Origin: Strigomonas culicis
Lineage: Eukaryota; Euglenozoa; Kinetoplastea; Trypanosomatida; Trypanosomatidae
Length of the DNA: 26,894 bases
Assembly (NCBI GenBank): GCA_000482145.1
Contig: AUXH01000229.1
Location: 1 to 26,894 of the forward strand
Direction of reading: 5' to 3'
Shown: positions 741-26,582 of the stretch, piece after piece
How the letters are laid out: the number at the start of each line of letters is the position of its first letter
Numbering within the stretch: position 1 is the stretch's first letter
Position numbers and translations under genes: made by a program
The notes under the pieces: generated by a model
Seen by the model: only the letters and a program-made list of their open reading frames with translations
What the model was told of the DNA's origin: nothing
The model's database searches: none

Positions 741-870
741 CTACAGAAATACATGAGAAAAACAAACAAACAAACAAAAAAAAACACGTGATTAAAAAAC
801 AATTATATGCACAAATGAACTAACAAAAAAAGTAATTTTACATTTAAGCGAACAACTCGAGACGCACATT

Positions 871-935: not shown

Positions 936-1264
936 CTCAGGACCCCATGCCTTCCAAGGCCTATGAAACGTTGGAGCCACGCCGCCGCAGCGGGTGCGTC
1001 TTGGCTTTGCGACGCGGGCAGCTGCTGCTGCTGCGGCTCCGGCGCCTTCACCAGCGGGGAGGGGAAGGCTGCGCCTGCACGCAGCACGGTGGGGCGCGCG
1101 GCGCCCCACACAGTGGTATCGAGGACGGGTGCGAGCCGGCCGGAGGGCTGCGACCGCTCCCACCGCGGCTCCGTGTACAGGATGCGGTGCGCACCTGCGT
1201 CCTGCTAAGCACCGCCGTGGTGGTAGTGAAAGCTGTTCTTGTGAGCCAGCTCCCGACGGTCGTC
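936..1264 (-). other. Coding-like in-frame extension beyond the TAG of the gene at 1265-2533
   Basis: Directly after the TAG at 1267-1265 the same frame continues DDRRELAHKNSFHYHHGGA, meets a second TAG at 1207-1205, then continues QDAGAHRILYTEPRWERS and onward to about position 940. My hand count over roughly the first 80 codons gives about 84 % G or C at the third position, with the second position clearly lower. That is the pattern of coding DNA in this frame and of the neighbouring genes. After about 940 the frame enters AT-rich and (CA)n sequence and reaches TAA only at 805-803. No ATG occurs in this stretch in this frame, so an independent gene is unlikely. Readthrough, local stop recoding, sequence error and a decaying 3' end are all possible. 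Confidence 0.55.
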
Positions 1265-2533
1265 CTACTCCTCCTCCCCGTACTCGTCCATTTCGTCCTC
1301 CCCTTCATACATGGAGGAGCGCGACGAACCGCTCCATGTGGATGCGGAGCGCGACGTGGATTGGCTCTGCCCATCCGCGTCCCACATCCCTCCCTCGTCC
1401 TGCAGCTGCCGCACGCGCGCCGCGAGGGGCCGCGCGTCGCAGCCGTACACCACCGCCAGCGTCAGGGCCAGCGCGCCCAGTAGCGCCGGCACGGCCACGC
1501 ACGCGCGGATGGGGATGTCGCCGAGCCGCTGCGCGGCGCGGTCGGCGGTCTGGATGAGGCGCTCCACATCCGCCGTGCCAAAGACATCCGCGGCGATGGC
1601 ATCCGCGGTCGCGTTGGACGTGGTGTGGTGCGCGTCGCCGCCGCCGGCGGTCAGGTTGCGGCCCAGCACCGTGAAGCCGCTCCCGTACACCATCGCGCGG
1701 AAGCGCCACGCGCCGTGGCGGTCCATGACCATCTGGTACGTGTCCGTCCACACGGTGGCGCGCGCGCCGGCGGCGCAGGCCGCCGCGTAGTCGCTCGCGC
1801 TGATGTTGGTCACGTAGCCGTTCAGCACGCGGCCGCGGCCGTCCCACAGCAGCAGGCTCGGCGGCACGGCGCCGCTGCGCAGGCCGCCGGGGTACGCCGG
1901 CGTCGCCCAATAGAGCGGGCAGCAGAGGGGGTGCACGCGGGCCTCCACGCACTCCTGCGCCACGGCCACGTTCAGCGGGAGGAAGAGTGCGGTCGTGGCC
2001 GCGGTGCTGTTGTCGGCGTGTGCGAGGCCGTCGCGCCACGCGAGATCCTCGAGCTCGGCGTAGGACAGGCCGAGGCCGAGCGTCGCGACCCAGTCGCGGT
2101 GCAGCGGCAGCGCCGCGGCGAGCACACCGCGATAGAGCCCCGCGTCGGCCGCCGTCATGACCCACACGGACGGCACCTGGTTGGCGGGGTAGCCCATCGC
2201 CGCGCACGCGGCGCCGGCGCGCAGCCCGGCCGGGAAGGCCGCTGGCACGTAGTAGCCCGAGGCGTTCAGGCAGCTGTACGTGGTGCTCGCCGTGCTGGTG
2301 GTCGCCGCAGCGCGGGTCTCGAAGGCGAGGAGAGTGCCGTCCATGTACGTCCCGCGGATGTATGCGCGGGTGCGCGTGGGGTCGTGGTAGCTGAGGGAGG
2401 CGGCCGCGCCGGCGGCGGGGTGCAGCAGGAGGCAAAGGGCCGCAACAAGGAGATGCGCGAGAAGTAACGTGGGAAAGGGACGGCGAGCGTGAGGGGGGCC
2501 GCGGGCGTGCAGCCCATGGGGTGCTCGGGCCAT
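1265..2533 (-). CDS. Type I single-pass membrane glycoprotein, unknown function
   Basis: The first in-frame ATG after an upstream TAA is at 2533; the product up to the first TAG is 422 residues. Residues 1-45 are a basic then hydrophobic leader (core LLLAHLLVAALCLLL), a probable signal peptide with an AxA-like end. The predicted lumenal or extracellular part (46-342) holds five N-glycosylation sequons (N90, N175, N243, N293, N307) and several cysteines, including CC at 204-205. One membrane segment lies at about 343-365, followed by a Ser-rich and then strongly acidic tail (EGEDEMDEYGEEE). I do not recognise the family. A surface or endomembrane protein with a short cytosolic tail is the natural reading. 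The acidic tail runs straight into the TAG and the frame beyond is coding-like, so the true C-terminus is uncertain. The neighbour at 3620-5509 has the same topology. Confidence 0.85.
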   Translation of the reverse strand: MARAPHGLHARGPPHARRPFPTLLLAHLLVAALCLLLHPAAGAAASLSYHDPTRTRAYIRGTYMDGTLLAFETRAAATTSTASTTYSCLNASGYYVPAAFPAGLRAGAACAAMGYPANQVPSVWVMTAADAGLYRGVLAAALPLHRDWVATLGLGLSYAELEDLAWRDGLAHADNSTAATTALFLPLNVAVAQECVEARVHPLCCPLYWATPAYPGGLRSGAVPPSLLLWDGRGRVLNGYVTNISASDYAAACAAGARATVWTDTYQMVMDRHGAWRFRAMVYGSGFTVLGRNLTAGGGDAHHTTSNATADAIAADVFGTADVERLIQTADRAAQRLGDIPIRACVAVPALLGALALTLAVVYGCDARPLAARVRQLQDEGGMWDADGQSQSTSRSASTWSGSSRSSMYEGEDEMDEYGEEE

Positions 2534-8477: not shown

Positions 8478-11400
8478 CTAGTTCAGCATGCGGCTATGAT
8501 ACTTCTTCTTATGCCCTTGTATCTTGGAGCGGTCGAAGAAGAGCCGCCGCTCGGCGGTCTCCAGCTGCTCGATGATGAGCTGCAGCCCCGCCGCGTTGAA
8601 CGCGCCGCGCCCGGCGGTCGCGTCGAGCCCCTCGGCGAGGTGCCGCCGCAGCCGCTGCAGCCGCTGCCCGGCGCCAGCGGCCGCGAGGTCGCCGCAGAGC
8701 GCCGCGGTGCGCGCGGCGAGGCCGGCGGCGCCGGCGCCGGCGACCGGCACGACCAGCGTCAGCACCATCTTCGCCGCGGTCTCGATGTTCAGCACCGCGC
8801 CGGCGGCGAACATCTTCTCTAGGTAGGACAGCAGCGCCTCCGTGTGGACGCTGGTGAGGGCGAGGAGTGTGTGGCGCAGCAGCGACGGCTTGATCGTCTC
8901 GATGACGAGCCAGAGATACTCCCACTCCGTTTTGTTCAGGAGGAGCGGGTGCCGCGGGGCGTGGTCGTCAGGGTTGATCTTCTTCTGCAGCTCGACGCTC
9001 ACCAAGTCGAGGGCCTCCATCAGCCGCTCGGCGCCCTCCGCGGTCGCCGCCGTCTGCTGCCCGGCGACGCCGACTTCCGGCGCGCCGGCGGCGTGCGGCG
9101 GCCCGTCCTCCGCCATGCGCTGCAGTGCCGCGCGCCGCGCGGTCTCCTCCTCGACCGCCTCCTGCGCGAGCCGCTCCTCCTCCTCCTGCGGGAAGAGAAT
9201 GTCCTGCGTGCGCAGCAGCAGCCGCACCTGGCGGTCCGCGCCAGCGGTCGCGAGGCACGTCTGGTTGTGCGTCGCCGCGACGGTGCAGACACCGTGGGCG
9301 TGCAGCCGCGTGCTCTGGATCATCGCCCAGTCGTCCCCGTCCCACCGCTTCACAGCGCCGTCGAGGGACGTGGTCAGCACGTGGTGCGTGCCGGCGAGAA
9401 ACACAACCGACGTCACGTAGTCGTCGTGTGCGTGGATCGCCTTGTGGCAGTCGCCGAAGTCGGTGCCCCAGAAGCGCAGCGACTTGTCGAGGCCGACGCT
9501 CGCGAGCAGGGTGCCGTCGTCGCTAAAGGCCAGCCCACTCGCGGGCAGCTTGTGGCCGAAGAGCGCCAGGTACGGCTTCAGGCTGTCGCCGAAGAAGAGC
9601 TGGATGTTGTGGTTCTGCAGCGCCACCGCGACGTAGCGCAGGTCCGCGCTGTACGCGACGCGCAGCGGCACCTCCGTCAGCTCCACCTCCTGCACCGGCA
9701 GCAGCGCCACCGCGCCGCCGGTCGCCGCCACCGCCCCCTCCCCCTTCGCCGCGGCCTTCGTGGCGCCACCGCCCTCCTTGAGGAGGCTCACCGTCCAGAG
9801 CACCATGCGGCGGTCCATGCCGACGCTCAGGAAGCCGCTCTCGTCCGGCTTCAGCACGATATCTTTTGCGCCGCCCTGGTGGCACTGCGGCTCGCAGAAG
9901 AGCAGCAGCGACGACGGCACATCCACGAGGGCGAGCGTGCCGTCGCTGAAGGCGACCGCGACGAGGTTCATGCTCGGTGCCGCCATGGCGACCGCGTCGC
10001 TCGTCAGCGCGAAGCGCTGCGCCGATGCGTCGTCGTCGCTCGCGGCGGTGAGACCCGCGAAGGGGACGCTGGCCGCCACGTTGAGGCGGCCGCGAAAGTA
10101 CGGCCGATACACGTTTGCCTCCTTGTTGTCGTAGAACTCGGACGTGGTGCGGTGGTTCTCGAGGAGCGAGGCGCTCTCGCCGTCGAGCGCGACGGCCCAC
10201 AGCAGCAGCTTCTCCCTGCTCATCGAGAGCAGCATCGTGTCGTTCTCCACGAACTGCACGTGGCGGATGTCGCTCTGGTGCCCGGCGTGGCTGAAGGTGA
10301 ACTTCGTTTTGAGGTCCGTCAGCGTCTGCACAGACGACGCGCCCGTCTCGACGCGCGTGAGGGACGTGCTGTACACCTCCATCGTGTTGCAGTTATACGT
10401 CACCGCGATGTGGAGTGTATTCGCGTCCGCGTCCTCCTCCGCGCCGCCGCGGTGCGGCCGCCTGCGCACGGCCGCCTGCGGCAGGAAGCAGGCACTGCGC
10501 ACCTTCGCGGCCGCGGCCCCGCCGGGGGCGACGAAGAAGGTGCGCAGCAGCTGCAGCTCGTCGGCCGCCGTGCGCACGGCCGCCGGCGCGTCCGCCCAAC
10601 CGCCGGCCCCCCCCGCCTCCACCGCACCGGCGTCGTCGTGGTCTTCCCCCTCCTCCTCCAGCCCCTCCGGCGGCTCCGCGCCGGCGCGCGGCCGCTTGCC
10701 GTCCGTCGGTGCCTGGCGCCGCCGCGCCTTCCGCTGCGCCTTGCGGCGGCTCTCCTCCCGCGTGAGGACGCGGAACACCTCCACCGTTTTGCTCGTGCAG
10801 GCCAACAGGTAGCGCCCGTCGCTCGCAAAGTGGAAGCGCGTGACGGCCTTGTGGTAGCGTCGGTCGAGTTGGCCGTGATCGTGCAGGAATACATCGTCGG
10901 CCGCGGCCTCGCCGCCGTCCGCCTTCTGCTTCTTCTCCGGCGGCGCGGCGCCGTCCGCGGCGGCGGGCGCGGCCGTCGCGTACACCTTGATGAAGTTTTC
11001 GTGGAGACCGCAGTACAGCCGCTTCCCCTGCGGGTCAAGGCACAGCGACACGACTTGGCTGTCCGTCGCGACGAGCGTCTGTAGGCACTGTCGCAGCTGC
11101 ATGTCCCACACCTTCACCAACCCGTCCGCCGCCGCGCTCACCACGAGCGCGCCGCCGCGGTGGGTCGGCGGCCGCGGCAGGAACTCCAGCCCGACGACGC
11201 CGCCGCGGTGGCCGCGCAGGCGGCACAGCGCCTCCTGCGCGGTGACGTCCCACACGGTCAGGTCCGTGTCCTGCCCGCCGCTCACCAAGAGCAGCATCCC
11301 GTCGTGTGCGGCCGTCGAGGAGGACGTGGCGGTGGTGGCCGTTGCCTGCGCCAGCCGCTGCGGGGAGGAGAAAAGACTGTCGTGGTTCATGCACAAGGAC

Positions 11401-11870
11401 AGCACCTGCGTCTCCAACTTGTGGCCGAGGGCGTAGAAGAGACAGACGGGCTGACCGTAGTTGTTGACGCTGTTCTTGTGAAACAGCGCGACGTGCCCAT
11501 TGTTGTAGCCGACAAGCAAGTACCAGCTCCTGTCCTCGCGGCGCGCGGTGGCCGCCGCCGTCGCGGCGATGACGCGCAGGGACGTGACCAGCAGCGGCAG
11601 CTTCGCCTCCGCAGGGGTGAGGCTGTACAGCAGCTCCCCGCTCCTCACCGTGTACACGCGCACTGCCTCCAGTGCCGGCACGAACACGCAGCCAACCTCA
11701 TGCTGCTGCTGCGGTGGCGCCGCGCCGCGGGTGCGTGGGGCGGCGGCCGGCTGCTGCTGTGCGGCGGAGGGGGGCGGCAGCATGAGGGCTTCCATCGTCA
11801 GGGCGGCGGCGCTGACCACGATGCCGCCCTCCGGCCCGCGCACGTAGCGCAGGTAGCTCTTCCCTACCAT
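8478..11870 (-). CDS. UTP12: UTP12 (DIP2/WDR3) WD40 protein of the U3 snoRNP / small-subunit processome
   Basis: The 1130-residue product starts MVGKSYLRYV, very like the conserved N-terminus of this family. It carries WD40 repeats across most of its length, for example TDLTVWD, GLVKVWD, KSLRFWG and GAVKRWD, consistent with tandem beta-propellers. The C-terminal Utp12 domain starts near residue 974 (LLLNKTEWEYLWLVIETIKP) and the end is basic (GHKKKYHSRMLN). UTP12 acts in the nucleolus in the UTP-B part of the processome during early 18S rRNA processing. The protein is longer than the yeast one (943 residues), mainly through Ala/Gly-rich insertions and a basic linker near residues 375-400 (RRKAQRKARRRQ). 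The stop is TAG, with TAA-TGA eight codons on; GC-rich codon use ends there. The family call is secure. Confidence 0.95.
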   Translation of the reverse strand: MVGKSYLRYVRGPEGGIVVSAAALTMEALMLPPPSAAQQQPAAAPRTRGAAPPQQQHEVGCVFVPALEAVRVYTVRSGELLYSLTPAEAKLPLLVTSLRVIAATAAATARREDRSWYLLVGYNNGHVALFHKNSVNNYGQPVCLFYALGHKLETQVLSLCMNHDSLFSSPQRLAQATATTATSSSTAAHDGMLLLVSGGQDTDLTVWDVTAQEALCRLRGHRGGVVGLEFLPRPPTHRGGALVVSAAADGLVKVWDMQLRQCLQTLVATDSQVVSLCLDPQGKRLYCGLHENFIKVYATAAPAAADGAAPPEKKQKADGGEAAADDVFLHDHGQLDRRYHKAVTRFHFASDGRYLLACTSKTVEVFRVLTREESRRKAQRKARRRQAPTDGKRPRAGAEPPEGLEEEGEDHDDAGAVEAGGAGGWADAPAAVRTAADELQLLRTFFVAPGGAAAAKVRSACFLPQAAVRRRPHRGGAEEDADANTLHIAVTYNCNTMEVYSTSLTRVETGASSVQTLTDLKTKFTFSHAGHQSDIRHVQFVENDTMLLSMSREKLLLWAVALDGESASLLENHRTTSEFYDNKEANVYRPYFRGRLNVAASVPFAGLTAASDDDASAQRFALTSDAVAMAAPSMNLVAVAFSDGTLALVDVPSSLLLFCEPQCHQGGAKDIVLKPDESGFLSVGMDRRMVLWTVSLLKEGGGATKAAAKGEGAVAATGGAVALLPVQEVELTEVPLRVAYSADLRYVAVALQNHNIQLFFGDSLKPYLALFGHKLPASGLAFSDDGTLLASVGLDKSLRFWGTDFGDCHKAIHAHDDYVTSVVFLAGTHHVLTTSLDGAVKRWDGDDWAMIQSTRLHAHGVCTVAATHNQTCLATAGADRQVRLLLRTQDILFPQEEEERLAQEAVEEETARRAALQRMAEDGPPHAAGAPEVGVAGQQTAATAEGAERLMEALDLVSVELQKKINPDDHAPRHPLLLNKTEWEYLWLVIETIKPSLLRHTLLALTSVHTEALLSYLEKMFAAGAVLNIETAAKMVLTLVVPVAGAGAAGLAARTAALCGDLAAAGAGQRLQRLRRHLAEGLDATAGRGAFNAAGLQLIIEQLETAERRLFFDRSKIQGHKKKYHSRMLN

Positions 11871-12856: not shown

Positions 12857-15800
12857 TTAGAATGTTGGCGCTTCTGCTGTTTCGTCAAGAACCCACTGAA
12901 CGGTTTTCCTTCTCTTATTATTATTAGTATTTTTGGCACTCATGGTCGTGCTGTTGGGATCGATGTTAAACCACTTACCTTTTCTCTTCGCCGTCGCCGT
13001 GTTCGCGTCCGTAGACGACAGTGTCGCGAGCACCTGCGACTGAGCATTATCATCCTTATTATTCTTATTATTGCTGTTCTTTTTCTTGAGATCGAACAGC
13101 AAAAAGTGACGGTCTTTCTGCCCCTTCTCTAAAATGACCTGTTCTCTCGTATGCGCGTCGTCCACGCTTGCAGTTGTCGTGGTCGGAAGGAACGAAATGG
13201 AAACAATGGGGACGTCCTCCTCATCCGCTCCGTTCCGATTCGCACGCGATGGATCGTGTGGCGGCGGCGCAGGGCGACGGTGGCGGGCCGCATCGCGCAG
13301 GATGCGCTGGAACCGCTCGAGCTGGAACTCACTGGCCAGACAGAAGGGCAGCAGGATGCGCTGGAAGCGCTCGCAGATCTCACGCCGCTGAAGAGAGCAA
13401 AACTGCGCGAGCGCGCGGCGCCGGCAGACCTCCTGCCGACAGAGGAAGAAGAGCTGGTAGAGAAGGAGCGTCGCGGCCTGGCTGTCCTTCAGGACCGCCA
13501 GGCGGGTCTGGAACTCGTGTGTCTGCAGGCGGTGGAGGGCCCGCAGCGGCGGCGTGGCGGCGTGGCGGCACACGCCGCCGCGAGGCGCGCGCGCGCGCGG
13601 TGCTCCGCCCGCAGCCACGCCTGCCGCCCGTCCGTCTCCATCGCCGGTACAAAGGCGAGGAGGCCGTCGCAGCGGTCGCGCCGCAGTGTGCTGCGCGCCG
13701 CCGCCTCCGCCGCGAACAGGGCGGCTGCGGCGACTGTGAACGCCTTTGTATTCTTCTCTGTCGGCGGACAACGCTGTGCGGTGCTGTGCGCCTGTAGCCG
13801 CGCGGCGATCTTCTGGCGGACGACGACGCTCGCAGCGTGGCGGGCGCGGCAGTACGCCTGAAGCGTCACGACGTGTGTCCGCACGCGGCGGTTGTTGCAA
13901 TGGACGCTCGAGAAGAGATAAAACACCGCGTGGATATCGGCCAGCTCGACCTCGCTTGTCCTTGTATGATAAAAGAGCCTAGGGCCCTTTTCCGGACTGT
14001 TCGGATCCGTGCTCGGATGTTTGCTCTGCAGAAACGTAGAGAGCAGATCGCTGGTGGTAAAGGAAAACCCCTCGCTGTCGCCCTGCGTCGTCTGAATACC
14101 CACCCCTAGCTTTTGCATGATGAAAACTAATCGTTTGAATAACAACGCATTATTATGAGTATCATTATTCGATTGAAAAAGAACCTGGTAATGCTTTCGA
14201 CAAAAGATGGGGTCCATATACTTCATGAAAGAAGCCAAGGGAACTCGTATCGGATGCTGCGGATGGGCGGTATCTGGTTCCGCTTCTTCTGCTATTGTTT
14301 TCCCCACTGCTCTCACGGACGAGAACAAAAAGACCGGACACCTCAAGAAGAGGCTCGCACTTGAGATTGCGCTCGGCTGCTGCTGCTGCGGATAATGCTG
14401 CGCGAAGCGAAACGCATACAGCAGCGTGTTGGCATCCGTTGTGCCGCACTGAGATGTAAACCATTCGAAAAAGTGAAATAGTCGCGCTGCACAACTCTGC
14501 GACGCGGAGCCAAAGTGTCGCTCGATGAGACACTCCAGATGATGCAGACAGTCCTCCACACTATCTTTATTATTATTATTATTGTGTGGCGATAGAAAAA
14601 GTTCCGCGATACACGCGTTGTATATCTCCACGCTGATTCTCTCTAACGGACATCGACGGTGGAGCCGACTATCTCCTATGGAGAGAAGCTGCGAGCCGTA
14701 CACGTCCGGCTGTGGCGGCGCTGCAAACTGCATCTGTACGCTGAAAGGATGACGCAAGAATAATTCATTACTCTTATTCTTATTAGTGTTATCAAACGAT
14801 GAGAATAATACCAGCGGAAATAGAACGCGCTGAAGGAAAAAGTTCGTTTTGACGGTCAAATAGAAGCGTGTGCTTTCTAGAAACTCCTCAAATAGTAGTT
14901 TTTGCGGTGACGTCCATGAAAAAAGCTCTTCGTAATAAAAAATAGTGTGACCACAGCACATGTAAGTTTCAAGAAAAGACTCTATATTATTATTGTTATT
15001 ACTGTGATTAGTGTCCGTATTCAGAGTAACAAAATGTGTATAATTAAAAAGATAATCAAAAATGAATAAGAGGTATATGTACTGAAACGTAGAATACACC
15101 GTATTATTACTATTATTGTTATTATCATTTATAAAATCACACATATTAAAAGGCGCGCTTTCCAGGTTATGATGATTATGATTATTATGATTTAACACGT
15201 ACTCCATTTCGGTCAATAGTGAGGCGTAACGCGTGATGGTATGCAGGATTAGATTTATGTGGGTCGAATTGGCATGACTATCCGAATCATCCTCCAGGCA
15301 GAGGGATGAAAAGAACATGTCTTGAAAAAAAATTTCCTTTTCCAACAGCCGTTTCTTCGTCTGCAATAGAAACGTGCGCATTTTCATATCGTCGTTTTCT
15401 TGATTCTTATTATTCGCTCCACTATTCTTACTACTATTATTATTCTTATTACTATTCTGTAAGTGCTCCTCCGCTAAGCGAAACCAAAAGTGGGAGAGCA
15501 CATCGATATCCTGCTGATGTGTCCCTTCCCGTAGCTGTATCGATAAGTGATGGATGCCCATGGTCGTGCTGTGGGAGGAAAATAAAACACTGTTATGACT
15601 ATTGGGTGTGCGTAGGAACAATAAAGGCGCATAGATGACAAGCGCCGTGCGTAGGAGGTCTGCCAAACGATGCTGCTGCTGTGACATTCTTACAGTTTCA
15701 TCATTCTCCACATCACGGAGAAGAAAACGAAACAATTCAGCGATGCGACTTATTTTATTATGAGGATGATTATTGGATACAATCAATAAGCTAATTAAGG

Positions 15801-15981
15801 AAGAAAACGAATTTGGCATGTCTAAAAGATCAAAGGTAAAATTATAGTTGATGTATCGTTTTTTTCTATGATGGTGATTTGACGCCTCCTCCGACTCTTG
15901 CGATGGTAACAGCGAACATAAAAATCGCAAGACGTCACGCTGATGGTCATCGTCGTACTCTTCTAGCGGAAGGGTTATCAT
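12857..15981 (-). pseudogene. Large unknown protein gene with an internal frameshift (possibly an intact gene with a sequence error)
   Basis: The gene starts at the ATG at 15981 (MITLPLEEYDDDHQRDVL). Its first frame stays coding-like to about 13600, and a second frame takes over and runs to a TAA at 12859-12857. The switch falls in a 15-base alternating GC run (13585-13599); one GC unit fewer would join the frames into about 1040 residues. The first two thirds are AT-richer than neighbouring genes and hold many short Asn runs. The last third is GC-rich, Ala/Arg-rich and helical. A weak IQ-like stretch (LQAYCRARHAASVVVRQK) lies just before the break. Near the C-terminus KTVQW fits the loose PP1-docking consensus [RK]-x(0,1)-[VI]-x-[FW]. 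I do not recognise the family. Both frames end cleanly at composition boundaries, so this was recently, or still is, one gene. Confidence 0.7.
13585..13599. repeat. (GC)7G run at the frame switch
   Basis: This 15-base perfect GC alternation lies where coding evidence moves from one minus-strand frame to another. Dinucleotide slippage here gives exactly the observed two-base (equivalently minus-one) shift. Confidence 0.85.
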
Positions 15982-23518: not shown

Positions 23519-24382
23519 TTATGCGCTCTTCTTCTTCTCCGCACCGGCGGCCGGCTTCTCTGCGCGCTTGGGCGGGGGCAGGATGTAGGACTTCACGAAC
23601 ATCTCCGAGAAGAGGTAGAAGTTGAAGATGTAGACCAGCAGCTGCGTGCGGGAGACGGTGATGTCGGTGCCGGGGCAGCCAGGCGCGCTGGGGTCGAACA
23701 CCTTCCTGTAGTTATGGTAGACGGAGTAGCCAGTAAAGAAGAGCCCGCCGACCATCTGCGTGATCTGCAACGCGGTGATGTAAATACCGAAGGGCTTGAC
23801 AACGTTCTTGAGACCCGCCTCGGCGAGGGCGAAGTAGAAGTACATGATGGTGTGCACAAAGTAGTTCATCGCGGCGGCATAGATGAAGATGGAGCTGCCC
23901 ATCTGGTAGCTCATCCACGCGAAGAGGTAGGTCGTCACGTGGTGAAACCACTGGAGGAAGGGAAGTGACTTCTTGCCTGTCATCAGCAGGAAGAAGGTGT
24001 CACCGAACTCGGGCAGCTTCGAGATCGCGAAGAGGCCAACCGCGAAGCCGGTCTTTGTCGTGTAGAACTCCTCCGGATGGAAGATGCAGATGTTTTCGTA
24101 CATCGTGTTCTTCTGAAACTTCTCCAGCACGACGGGCACAATGCGGATCACGCCGTAGAGGGAAAAGATGGAGAGACCAAAGTTCCACAGCATCCACGCC
24201 TTCTTGATGAGACCCACCGGCTGCTTGCCCTTGAAGAGCTTCTCAATGTAGTGGGGCCCCGCAAAGACGAAGGTCAGGTACACACCGGCGATGTACACAC
24301 TGATGTCCACGTTGTCCTCCAGCCACTGGCGGAGCACGAGGCCGTTGTACACGTTTTCACCGTAATTGTTAAGAGCCTCCAT
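23519..24382 (-). CDS. ELO: ELO-family fatty-acid elongase (3-ketoacyl-CoA synthase), copy 2 of tandem pair
   Basis: The 287-residue multi-pass protein has the full ELO signature set: KLPEFGDT (122-129), the histidine box QWFHH (144-148), NYFVHTIMYFYF (173-184) and ITALQITQM (202-210). About seven hydrophobic segments are visible. ELO proteins condense malonyl-CoA with acyl-CoA in the ER, the first step of chain extension; trypanosomatids use several ELOs with different chain-length ranges for bulk fatty-acid synthesis. The first His of the usual HxxHH box is Gln here. The C-terminus is Lys-rich (AEKKKSA), as in ER-resident membrane proteins. The paralogue at 25725-26582 lies just upstream in the same unit. 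Substrate range cannot be read from the sequence. Stop is TAA. Confidence 0.96.
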   Translation of the reverse strand: MEALNNYGENVYNGLVLRQWLEDNVDISVYIAGVYLTFVFAGPHYIEKLFKGKQPVGLIKKAWMLWNFGLSIFSLYGVIRIVPVVLEKFQKNTMYENICIFHPEEFYTTKTGFAVGLFAISKLPEFGDTFFLLMTGKKSLPFLQWFHHVTTYLFAWMSYQMGSSIFIYAAAMNYFVHTIMYFYFALAEAGLKNVVKPFGIYITALQITQMVGGLFFTGYSVYHNYRKVFDPSAPGCPGTDITVSRTQLLVYIFNFYLFSEMFVKSYILPPPKRAEKPAAGAEKKKSA

Positions 24383-25724: not shown

Positions 25725-26582
25725 TTAACGGCGGGTCTTCTTGAAGACGTAGTTCTTGAAGAACATCTCACCAAAGAGGTACAGGAAGAAGGTGTAGATG
25801 CAGAACTGCAGGCGCGCGTTGTAAAGAGACGTGCCGGGGCAAGCGCCGACGCCGTAGGCATCGTGCGCCACACCGTTCGGCAGGTCGACGAAGTACTTCT
25901 GGTAGATGACGTAGCTGGAGGACCACATGACGCCCATCATCTGAATGAGCTGGAGAGCCGTGATGTACATGGCGAGGGGCTTGACCTCCTCCTTGAAACC
26001 CGCCTCCGCGAGGGCGAAGTACATGTACATGATGGTGTGCACAAAGTAGTTGTACGCCGCCGCGGTGATGAAGATGGAGCTGCCCTGCTCGTAGGCGAAC
26101 CAGACAAAGAGGAACATGCTGGTGTGGTGGAAGAACTGGAGAAATGGCAGCTTCTTGCCGAGGAGCAGCAGGAAGACGGTGTCGCCGAACTCGGGCAGCT
26201 TCGACATGGTGAAGAGGCCCAGCGCCGTGCCGATCTCCGTCGTGTAGAACTCCTCCGGGCGGAAAGTGCAGAAGGTGTCGTGGATGCCGTACTTCATGAA
26301 GTTCTTGATCAGAGGCGGGAACACGCGGGTCGTGCCGTAGAAGGCAAAGGCGGAGAGGAACAGGTTCCAGACGACCCACACCTTCTTCACCTTCTCCTGC
26401 ATAATCTTGTTCTTCTCGGTCCCGGCCTCGCCCATGAAGCGGGGGATGTAGCGCGGCGCGTAGAAGACAAACATTAGGTACAGGAAGGAGATGCTGAGCG
26501 CAACATCCTTGTTGTTCGACAGCCAGGTCTTGAAGCCGTAGCCGCTGTAGCTGGTCTCGCCCCACTGGTCAACGAACTGCAT
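25725..26582 (-). CDS. ELO: ELO-family fatty-acid elongase (3-ketoacyl-CoA synthase), copy 1 of tandem pair
   Basis: The 285-residue protein shows the same ELO motifs as its neighbour: KLPEFGDT (128-135), histidine box QFFHH (149-153), NYFVHTIMYMYF (178-189) and ITALQLIQM (207-215). The first residue of the box is again Gln in place of His. It is clearly a paralogue, but the N-terminal 60 residues, the loop after the membrane core (VDLPNGVAHDAYG) and the C-terminus (VFKKTRR) have diverged, so the two probably act on different acyl chain lengths. It is an ER multi-pass enzyme for malonyl-CoA-dependent chain extension. It is the first complete gene of the array in the direction of transcription here. 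Stop is TAA. Confidence 0.96.
   Translation of the reverse strand: MQFVDQWGETSYSGYGFKTWLSNNKDVALSISFLYLMFVFYAPRYIPRFMGEAGTEKNKIMQEKVKKVWVVWNLFLSAFAFYGTTRVFPPLIKNFMKYGIHDTFCTFRPEEFYTTEIGTALGLFTMSKLPEFGDTVFLLLLGKKLPFLQFFHHTSMFLFVWFAYEQGSSIFITAAAYNYFVHTIMYMYFALAEAGFKEEVKPLAMYITALQLIQMMGVMWSSSYVIYQKYFVDLPNGVAHDAYGVGACPGTSLYNARLQFCIYTFFLYLFGEMFFKNYVFKKTRR

What the first reader, a model, noticed from the sequence alone, without database searches (positions are those of the whole stretch)
936..1267. Coding frame continues through two in-frame TAG codons at the 3' end of a membrane-protein gene
Every other gene here ends close to the point where GC-rich coding DNA turns AT-rich. The gene at 1265-2533 does not: its TAG (1267-1265) lies about 330 bases inside the GC-rich block. 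The same frame beyond it has about 84 % GC at third positions by hand count, with lower GC at second positions, and reads as normal protein, crossing a second TAG at 1207-1205. The first TAG sits inside an acidic run (GEDEMDEYGEEE, then DD), where a GAG-to-TAG change is one base. The second is followed by CAG, matching the start of the leaky UAG-CAR context but not its YYA part. No ATG lies in the extension. Options are regulated readthrough giving a longer cytosolic tail, local recoding of UAG (UAG is read as Glu in Blastocrithidia), sequence error, or a recently decayed 3' end. Genome-wide reassignment is unlikely, because about 5,700 codons in the other genes have no internal TAG.
Basis: partly seen in the sequence, partly recalled or inferred. 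Interest (0 to 1): 0.75.

Follow-up and report, generated by a model that had tools for sequence, protein, structure and literature searches.

The report
Decayed former end of a gene
In an insect-dwelling single-celled parasite, a gene for an unknown membrane protein seems to have lost its last hundred or so codons to new stop signals, and the old coding sequence is still visible behind the present end; nothing yet shows that the cell reads through those stops.

Summary
The 422-aa ORF (1265-2533, minus) ends at TAG 1267-1265, and GC-rich DNA with codon structure continues in the same frame to about 973, across a second TAG (1207-1205). A coding HMM trained without this gene runs through both TAGs. 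Of 58 sampled ORFs, one other has a GC-rich run of 200 nt or more behind its stop, and that one is spurious.

Special decoding is not supported. The frame is not kept open: two stops seen, 2.04 expected from composition. Where GC-rich DNA ends there is no in-frame stop; the frame runs on to TAA 805-803, while a TAG at the edge (963-961) lies in the +1 frame. RNA folds after the stops are unremarkable. TAG ends 26 of 58 sampled ORFs, and no CUA-anticodon tRNA was found. Simulated neutral decay of a coding 3' end gives the stop count, codon score and third-position GC together.

The DNA is Strigomonas culicis or very close. No orthologue of the gene was found, so selection is untested. Best reading: a shortened gene with a decaying former 3' end. 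Sequence error is the main rival; readthrough is unlikely but not excluded.

The parts
1265..2533 (-). ORF of 422 aa, by eye a signal peptide, an ectodomain, one transmembrane segment and a short acidic cytosolic tail; family unknown
   Evidence: no Pfam match, no homologue found, no PDB match at E <= 1, single match in the assembly. Signal peptide and membrane segment judged by eye only.
1265..1267 (-). first TAG, present end of the ORF
1205..1207 (-). second in-frame TAG, followed by CAG GAC
973..1264 (-). GC-rich stretch with coding-like composition in the gene's frame: proposed relic of a longer 3' end
   Evidence: HMM coding state reaches 973; +8.6 bits in frame over 936-1264
961..963 (-). 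TAG in the +1 frame at the edge of the GC-rich block; possibly the former stop, if an indel has occurred (inference)
803..805 (-). next stop (TAA) in the gene's own frame, well inside AT-rich DNA
947..1483 (+). overlapping antisense ORF in the mirror frame; thought to be a by-product of codon structure, not a gene
   Evidence: plus-strand frame over 936-1264 scores -1.2 bits

Best explanation
The gene once ran on for about 100 codons past the present TAG. Nonsense mutations, and probably an indel near the far end, cut that tail off. Translation now ends at TAG 1267-1265, in the cytosolic tail beyond the membrane segment, so the ectodomain and anchor are untouched. The stretch from 1264 to about 973 is now 3' UTR and is drifting from GC-rich coding composition towards the AT-rich composition of this genome's spacers. 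Shown: the in-frame coding signature, the two stops, no in-frame stop at the GC edge, and the rarity of the case. Inferred: loss of constraint, the order of events, the indel, and that the stretch is transcribed as 3' UTR.
For: In-frame coding signature across both TAGs with a model that never saw this gene. Stop count equals that expected from composition, 2 against 2.04. Mutating windows of this gene at 20-30 % of sites gives 1.5-2.3 stops, 24 to 8 bits and GC3 0.82-0.75; tails of other genes at 10-20 % give 1.1-2.1 stops, 23 to 5 bits and GC3 0.77-0.72; observed 2, 8.6 and 0.79. No in-frame stop at the GC edge but a +1-frame TAG there, while 44 of 58 sampled ORFs have no GC-rich run behind the stop at all.
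Against: No orthologue, so a longer ancestral form is not seen. The gene's last 120-nt windows before the TAG score no better than those behind it, so there is no visible step at the stop. Undecayed gene tails vary widely (mean 41, sd 30 bits), so the extension's score alone does not show decay. The equilibrium GC of 0.30 in the simulation is an assumption.
Confidence: 0.55

Rival explanations
1. Sequence or assembly error: the gene is intact and longer, and the TAGs (and a frame change near the end) are errors in a difficult GC-rich stretch.
For: The window's ORF 13489-15981 changes frame near 13574, and the HMM shows frame changes in three other loci (L042, L046, L051) among 109 segments; these may be errors. 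Another S. culicis record differs from the window in UTP12 by what looks like a pair of compensating indels.
Against: Two separate stop-making substitutions 60 bases apart would be needed. Internal stops are rare: 1 of 264 domain matches. In UTP12 the window agrees with six orthologues and the other record does not. The frame has no stop at the GC edge, so at least one further error would be needed.
Confidence: 0.2
2. The GC-rich stretch never belonged to this gene: a GC-rich 3' UTR, or part of an antisense coding sequence on the plus strand, whose mirror frame happens to be in phase.
For: Stop count as in composition. One antisense frame of true coding windows reaches the score in 37.6 % of cases. 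A plus-strand ORF 947-1483 exists.
Against: The minus frame in phase with the gene scores about 10 bits better than the best plus frame. No other real gene of the 58 sampled has a GC-rich 3' flank of 200 nt or more. The large ORFs of the window that I take as genes are all on the minus strand.
Confidence: 0.14
3. Programmed readthrough of one or both TAGs makes a protein with a longer cytosolic tail.
For: Coding-like composition on both sides of both TAGs with no visible step; the second TAG is followed by CAG.
Against: Two stops must be passed. Contexts are TAG GAC and TAG CAG GAC; the second meets CAR but not YYA, and PMC4132726 (passages) reports all six bases of CARYYA as important in the context tested. 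RNA folds after the stops are unremarkable, z -1.41 and -0.43. Stops are not depleted. The frame then runs 44 codons into AT-rich repeat DNA.
Confidence: 0.08
4. UAG is recoded as an amino acid such as glutamate, locally or genome-wide, as in Blastocrithidia.
For: Acidic context of the first TAG. S. culicis was once named Blastocrithidia culicis (passage of PMC3616161), though the name says nothing about the code.
Against: TAG is the commonest stop in the sample, 26 of 58, whereas Blastocrithidia uses UAA as the only stop and has tRNAs cognate to UAR (PMC12153298, abstract and passages). No CTA anticodon in 30 tRNA loci or 55 unique tRNAs; 0 pattern matches. 1 TAG in 264 domain matches.
Confidence: 0.01

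Closest known systems
Genes shortened by a 3' nonsense mutation, with relic coding sequence behind the stop (general class; recalled, no call)
   Same: Intact upstream ORF, in-phase coding-like sequence behind the stop, stops and probably a frame change in it
   Different: No intact relative seen, so the former longer form is inferred from composition only
Programmed stop-codon readthrough genes, such as those in PMC4132726 (passages)
   Same: Coding-like in-frame sequence behind the stop
   Different: No complete known motif, no unusual RNA fold, two stops, no conservation shown, stops not depleted
Blastocrithidia stop-codon reassignment, PMC12153298 (abstract and passages)
   Same: Trypanosomatid; in-frame TAG in an acidic run
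   Different: TAG is a regular stop here, internal TAGs elsewhere are rare, no CUA-anticodon tRNA was found

Membership tests
Gene with a decayed former 3' coding end | In-phase coding signature behind the stop | tested here: met
Gene with a decayed former 3' coding end | Stops present at the density expected without constraint | tested here: met
   2 seen, 2.04 expected
Gene with a decayed former 3' coding end | A longer intact form in relatives | tested here: inconclusive
   no homologue found
Programmed readthrough | Known leaky stop context | tested here: not met
   TAG GAC and TAG CAG GAC; CARYYA only half met
Programmed readthrough | Stimulatory RNA structure behind the stop | tested here: inconclusive
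   z -1.41 and -0.43; no Rfam match in the window at gathering scores
Programmed readthrough | Extension conserved as protein in relatives | not testable with these tools
   no relative of the gene found
Programmed readthrough | Extended product seen | not testable with these tools
   needs ribosome profiling or mass spectrometry
UAG reassignment (Blastocrithidia type) | UAG no longer used as a stop | tested here: not met
   TAG ends 26 of 58 sampled ORFs
UAG reassignment (Blastocrithidia type) | In-frame UAG in many genes | tested here: not met
   1 of 264 domain matches; this gene alone of 109 HMM segments has stops deep inside
UAG reassignment (Blastocrithidia type) | tRNA with CUA anticodon | tested here: inconclusive
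   none found, but only 63 of 208 candidates were scored and the pattern form catches 34 of 55 tRNAs
UAG reassignment (Blastocrithidia type) | eRF1 substitution Ser74Gly (associated with UGA readthrough) | not tested
   eRF1 was not examined

The most novel reading that the evidence does not exclude
A trypanosomatid nuclear gene whose two UAG codons are passed at a low, regulated rate, adding a cytosolic tail of about 110-150 residues to a membrane protein, in a lineage that otherwise uses the standard code.
Probability: 0.07. Interest if true: 0.6.

Novelty: new member of a known kind. Interest (0 to 1): 0.17.

Why it matters
As a decayed 3' end it is an ordinary but clean example: the sharp contrast between GC-rich genes and AT-rich spacers in this genome makes lost coding sequence visible, and gene shortening could be looked for that way. 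If it were readthrough, it would be a case in a trypanosomatid with the standard code, of interest because the genus Blastocrithidia has reassigned all three stops.

Tried and rejected
Orthologues: the 422-aa protein gave none at E <= 0.001 among 7996 scored candidates. The last 134 codons including the extension, X at each TAG, gave none at E <= 10 among 82 candidates. By the tool's length rule these cover only proteins of about 232-738 and 74-235 aa, and only relatives sharing exact 5-residue words. The database does hold an S. culicis protein and other trypanosomatids, so the gene may be missing or unannotated there.

Second copies: the gene, 401 bases across the extension and the 89-residue piece behind the second TAG each match only themselves in the assembly.

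Frame change instead of nonsense: in sliding 120-nt windows no other frame takes over behind the first TAG until windows reaching below about 940, where the +1 frame scores better.

Known RNA elements: no Rfam match in the window at gathering scores. Known family or fold: no Pfam match at E <= 0.1, no PDB match at E <= 1. No structure prediction was run.

Literature: six searches. In their listings I saw no title reporting programmed readthrough in Strigomonas. Of papers, I saw the outline and passages of PMC12153298 and passages of PMC3616161, PMC4132726 and PMC8472099; the rest only as listings.

Full report
What the window is. The neighbouring gene 8481-11870 (minus) encodes UTP12; its best match is a Strigomonas culicis protein, 97 % identical. 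The alignment is identical except for one stretch near residues 1055-1080. There the window agrees with six orthologues, while the other record looks like a pair of compensating frameshifts. The window is therefore S. culicis or a near-identical strain; it is contig C229 of an assembly of 17.7 Mb in 670 contigs. PMC3616161 (passages) describes S. culicis data by 454 pyrosequencing; that the discordant record stems from those data is an inference.

The observation. The minus-strand ORF 2533-1265 (422 aa) ends with TAG 1267-1265. Reading on in frame gives 19 codons, TAG 1207-1205, then no stop until TAA 805-803. Over 936-1264 GC by codon position is 0.77/0.54/0.79, against 0.70/0.58/0.91 in the gene. 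By 33-codon blocks GC3 goes from 0.91 (codons 363-396) to 0.79, 0.82, 0.82 and 0.73. The stop count is no argument for an open frame: 5000 mononucleotide shuffles give 2.04 stops on average, and two are seen.

Is it coding-like? I took 20 stretches of 10 kb from the assembly plus the window, called ORFs of 200 codons or more with a codon model, and left this gene out of the codon counts. ORFs scoring 0.1 or less were dropped, among them the window's 13489-15981. Of 58 ORFs with 327 nt downstream, two have a GC-rich run of 200 nt or more behind the stop: this one (285 nt) and L046:9069-9704. The latter lies antisense in a stretch where a plus-strand frame carries the coding signal, so it is spurious. 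In this gene the next 300 nt score +0.08 bits per codon in frame; in the 30 of 58 rows printed, the other in-frame scores are -0.71 or lower except the spurious L046 (-0.12). A three-periodic HMM, also trained without this gene, keeps the coding state in frame to 973 through both TAGs; among 109 coding segments one other has an internal stop, 15 codons before the end of a segment in L043, which looks like overshoot. In a direct test 936-1264 scores +8.6 bits in frame, -30.8 and -84.0 in the other minus frames, and -32.8, -77.4 and -1.2 on the plus strand. None of 2000 shuffles, and none of 282 coding windows read in either wrong sense frame, reach 8.6. It lies at the 10.8 % point of 279 true coding windows and the 15.5 % point of 58 gene tails; those windows were also the training set, which makes the comparison hard on the extension.

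Results against my reading. One antisense frame of true coding windows reaches the extension's score in 37.6 % of cases, so an antisense origin is disfavoured, not excluded. The last 120-nt windows of the gene before the TAG score no better than those behind it, so there is no visible step at the stop. No relative was found, so selection is untested.

Why decay fits best. When windows of this gene are mutated by an AT-biased neutral process, 20-30 % replaced sites give 1.5-2.3 stops, 24 to 8 bits and GC3 0.82-0.75; tails of other genes at 10-20 % give 1.1-2.1 stops, 23 to 5 bits and GC3 0.77-0.72. Observed values are 2, 8.6 and 0.79 (simulation). The equilibrium GC of 0.30 is my assumption from the AT-rich spacers. 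Undecayed tails vary widely (sd 30 bits), so it is the three measures together, not the score, that speak for decay. Further, the gene's frame has no stop where the GC-rich block ends, although 44 of 58 sampled ORFs have no GC-rich run at all behind their stop. A TAG at 963-961 stands at that edge in the +1 frame, as expected if an indel has also occurred; the indel is inference.

Why not special decoding. TAG ends 26 of the 58 sampled ORFs, this gene and one spurious ORF being among the 58. Domain scans of the assembly show stops inside 0 of 139 Pkinase, 1 of 72 Helicase_C (one TAG) and 0 of 53 Kinesin matches; in the Pkinase search 121 of 185 candidates were scored. ARAGORN found no CTA anticodon in 30 tRNA loci or among 55 unique tRNAs of the fetched DNA. 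Two CTA-anticodon patterns had 0 matches in the assembly, but their generic form matches only 34 of 55 tRNAs, and the tRNA family search scored 63 of 208 candidates, so the tRNA evidence is incomplete. In Blastocrithidia, by contrast, UAA is the only stop and tRNAs cognate to UAR exist (PMC12153298, abstract and passages). The contexts here are TAG GAC and TAG CAG GAC; PMC4132726 (passages) reports that all six bases of CARYYA matter in the context tested. RNA behind the stops folds with z -1.41 and -0.43; a control stretch inside the gene gave +1.78.

Sequence error remains the main rival. The window's ORF 13489-15981 changes frame near 13574, and three other loci show a change of frame in the HMM. 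Against it: two separate stop-making substitutions would be needed, internal stops are rare elsewhere (above), and the one place where the window could be held against relatives, in UTP12, is sound.

Verdict. The anomaly is real and rare in this sample of the genome. It is most simply a shortened gene with a decaying former 3' end.

Noticed in passing
13489-15981 (minus), frame change near 13574, coding signal on to about 12935: This ORF ends inside a GC-rich block because the coding frame changes; the stretch after it reads as protein in another minus frame. Assembly indel or broken gene, not decided.
   Followed up: partly
8481-11870 (minus), near residues 1055-1080 of UTP12: Another S. culicis record differs from the window by what looks like a pair of compensating indels; the window agrees with six orthologues.
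   Followed up: yes
G000:C205:24475-24795 (+): A Helicase_C domain match with one in-frame TAG, the only one of 72.
   Followed up: no
L042 near 1019, L046 at 855, L051 near 2015: The HMM changes coding frame at these places: possible assembly indels or broken genes.
   Followed up: partly
23519-24382 and 25725-26582 (minus): Two adjacent genes that look like fatty-acid elongases; recognised by eye from recalled motifs, not scanned against a library.
   Followed up: no
whole window: Very sharp contrast between GC-rich genes (about 70 % GC) and AT-rich spacers (about 25-35 % GC), which makes lost coding sequence easy to see.
   Followed up: partly
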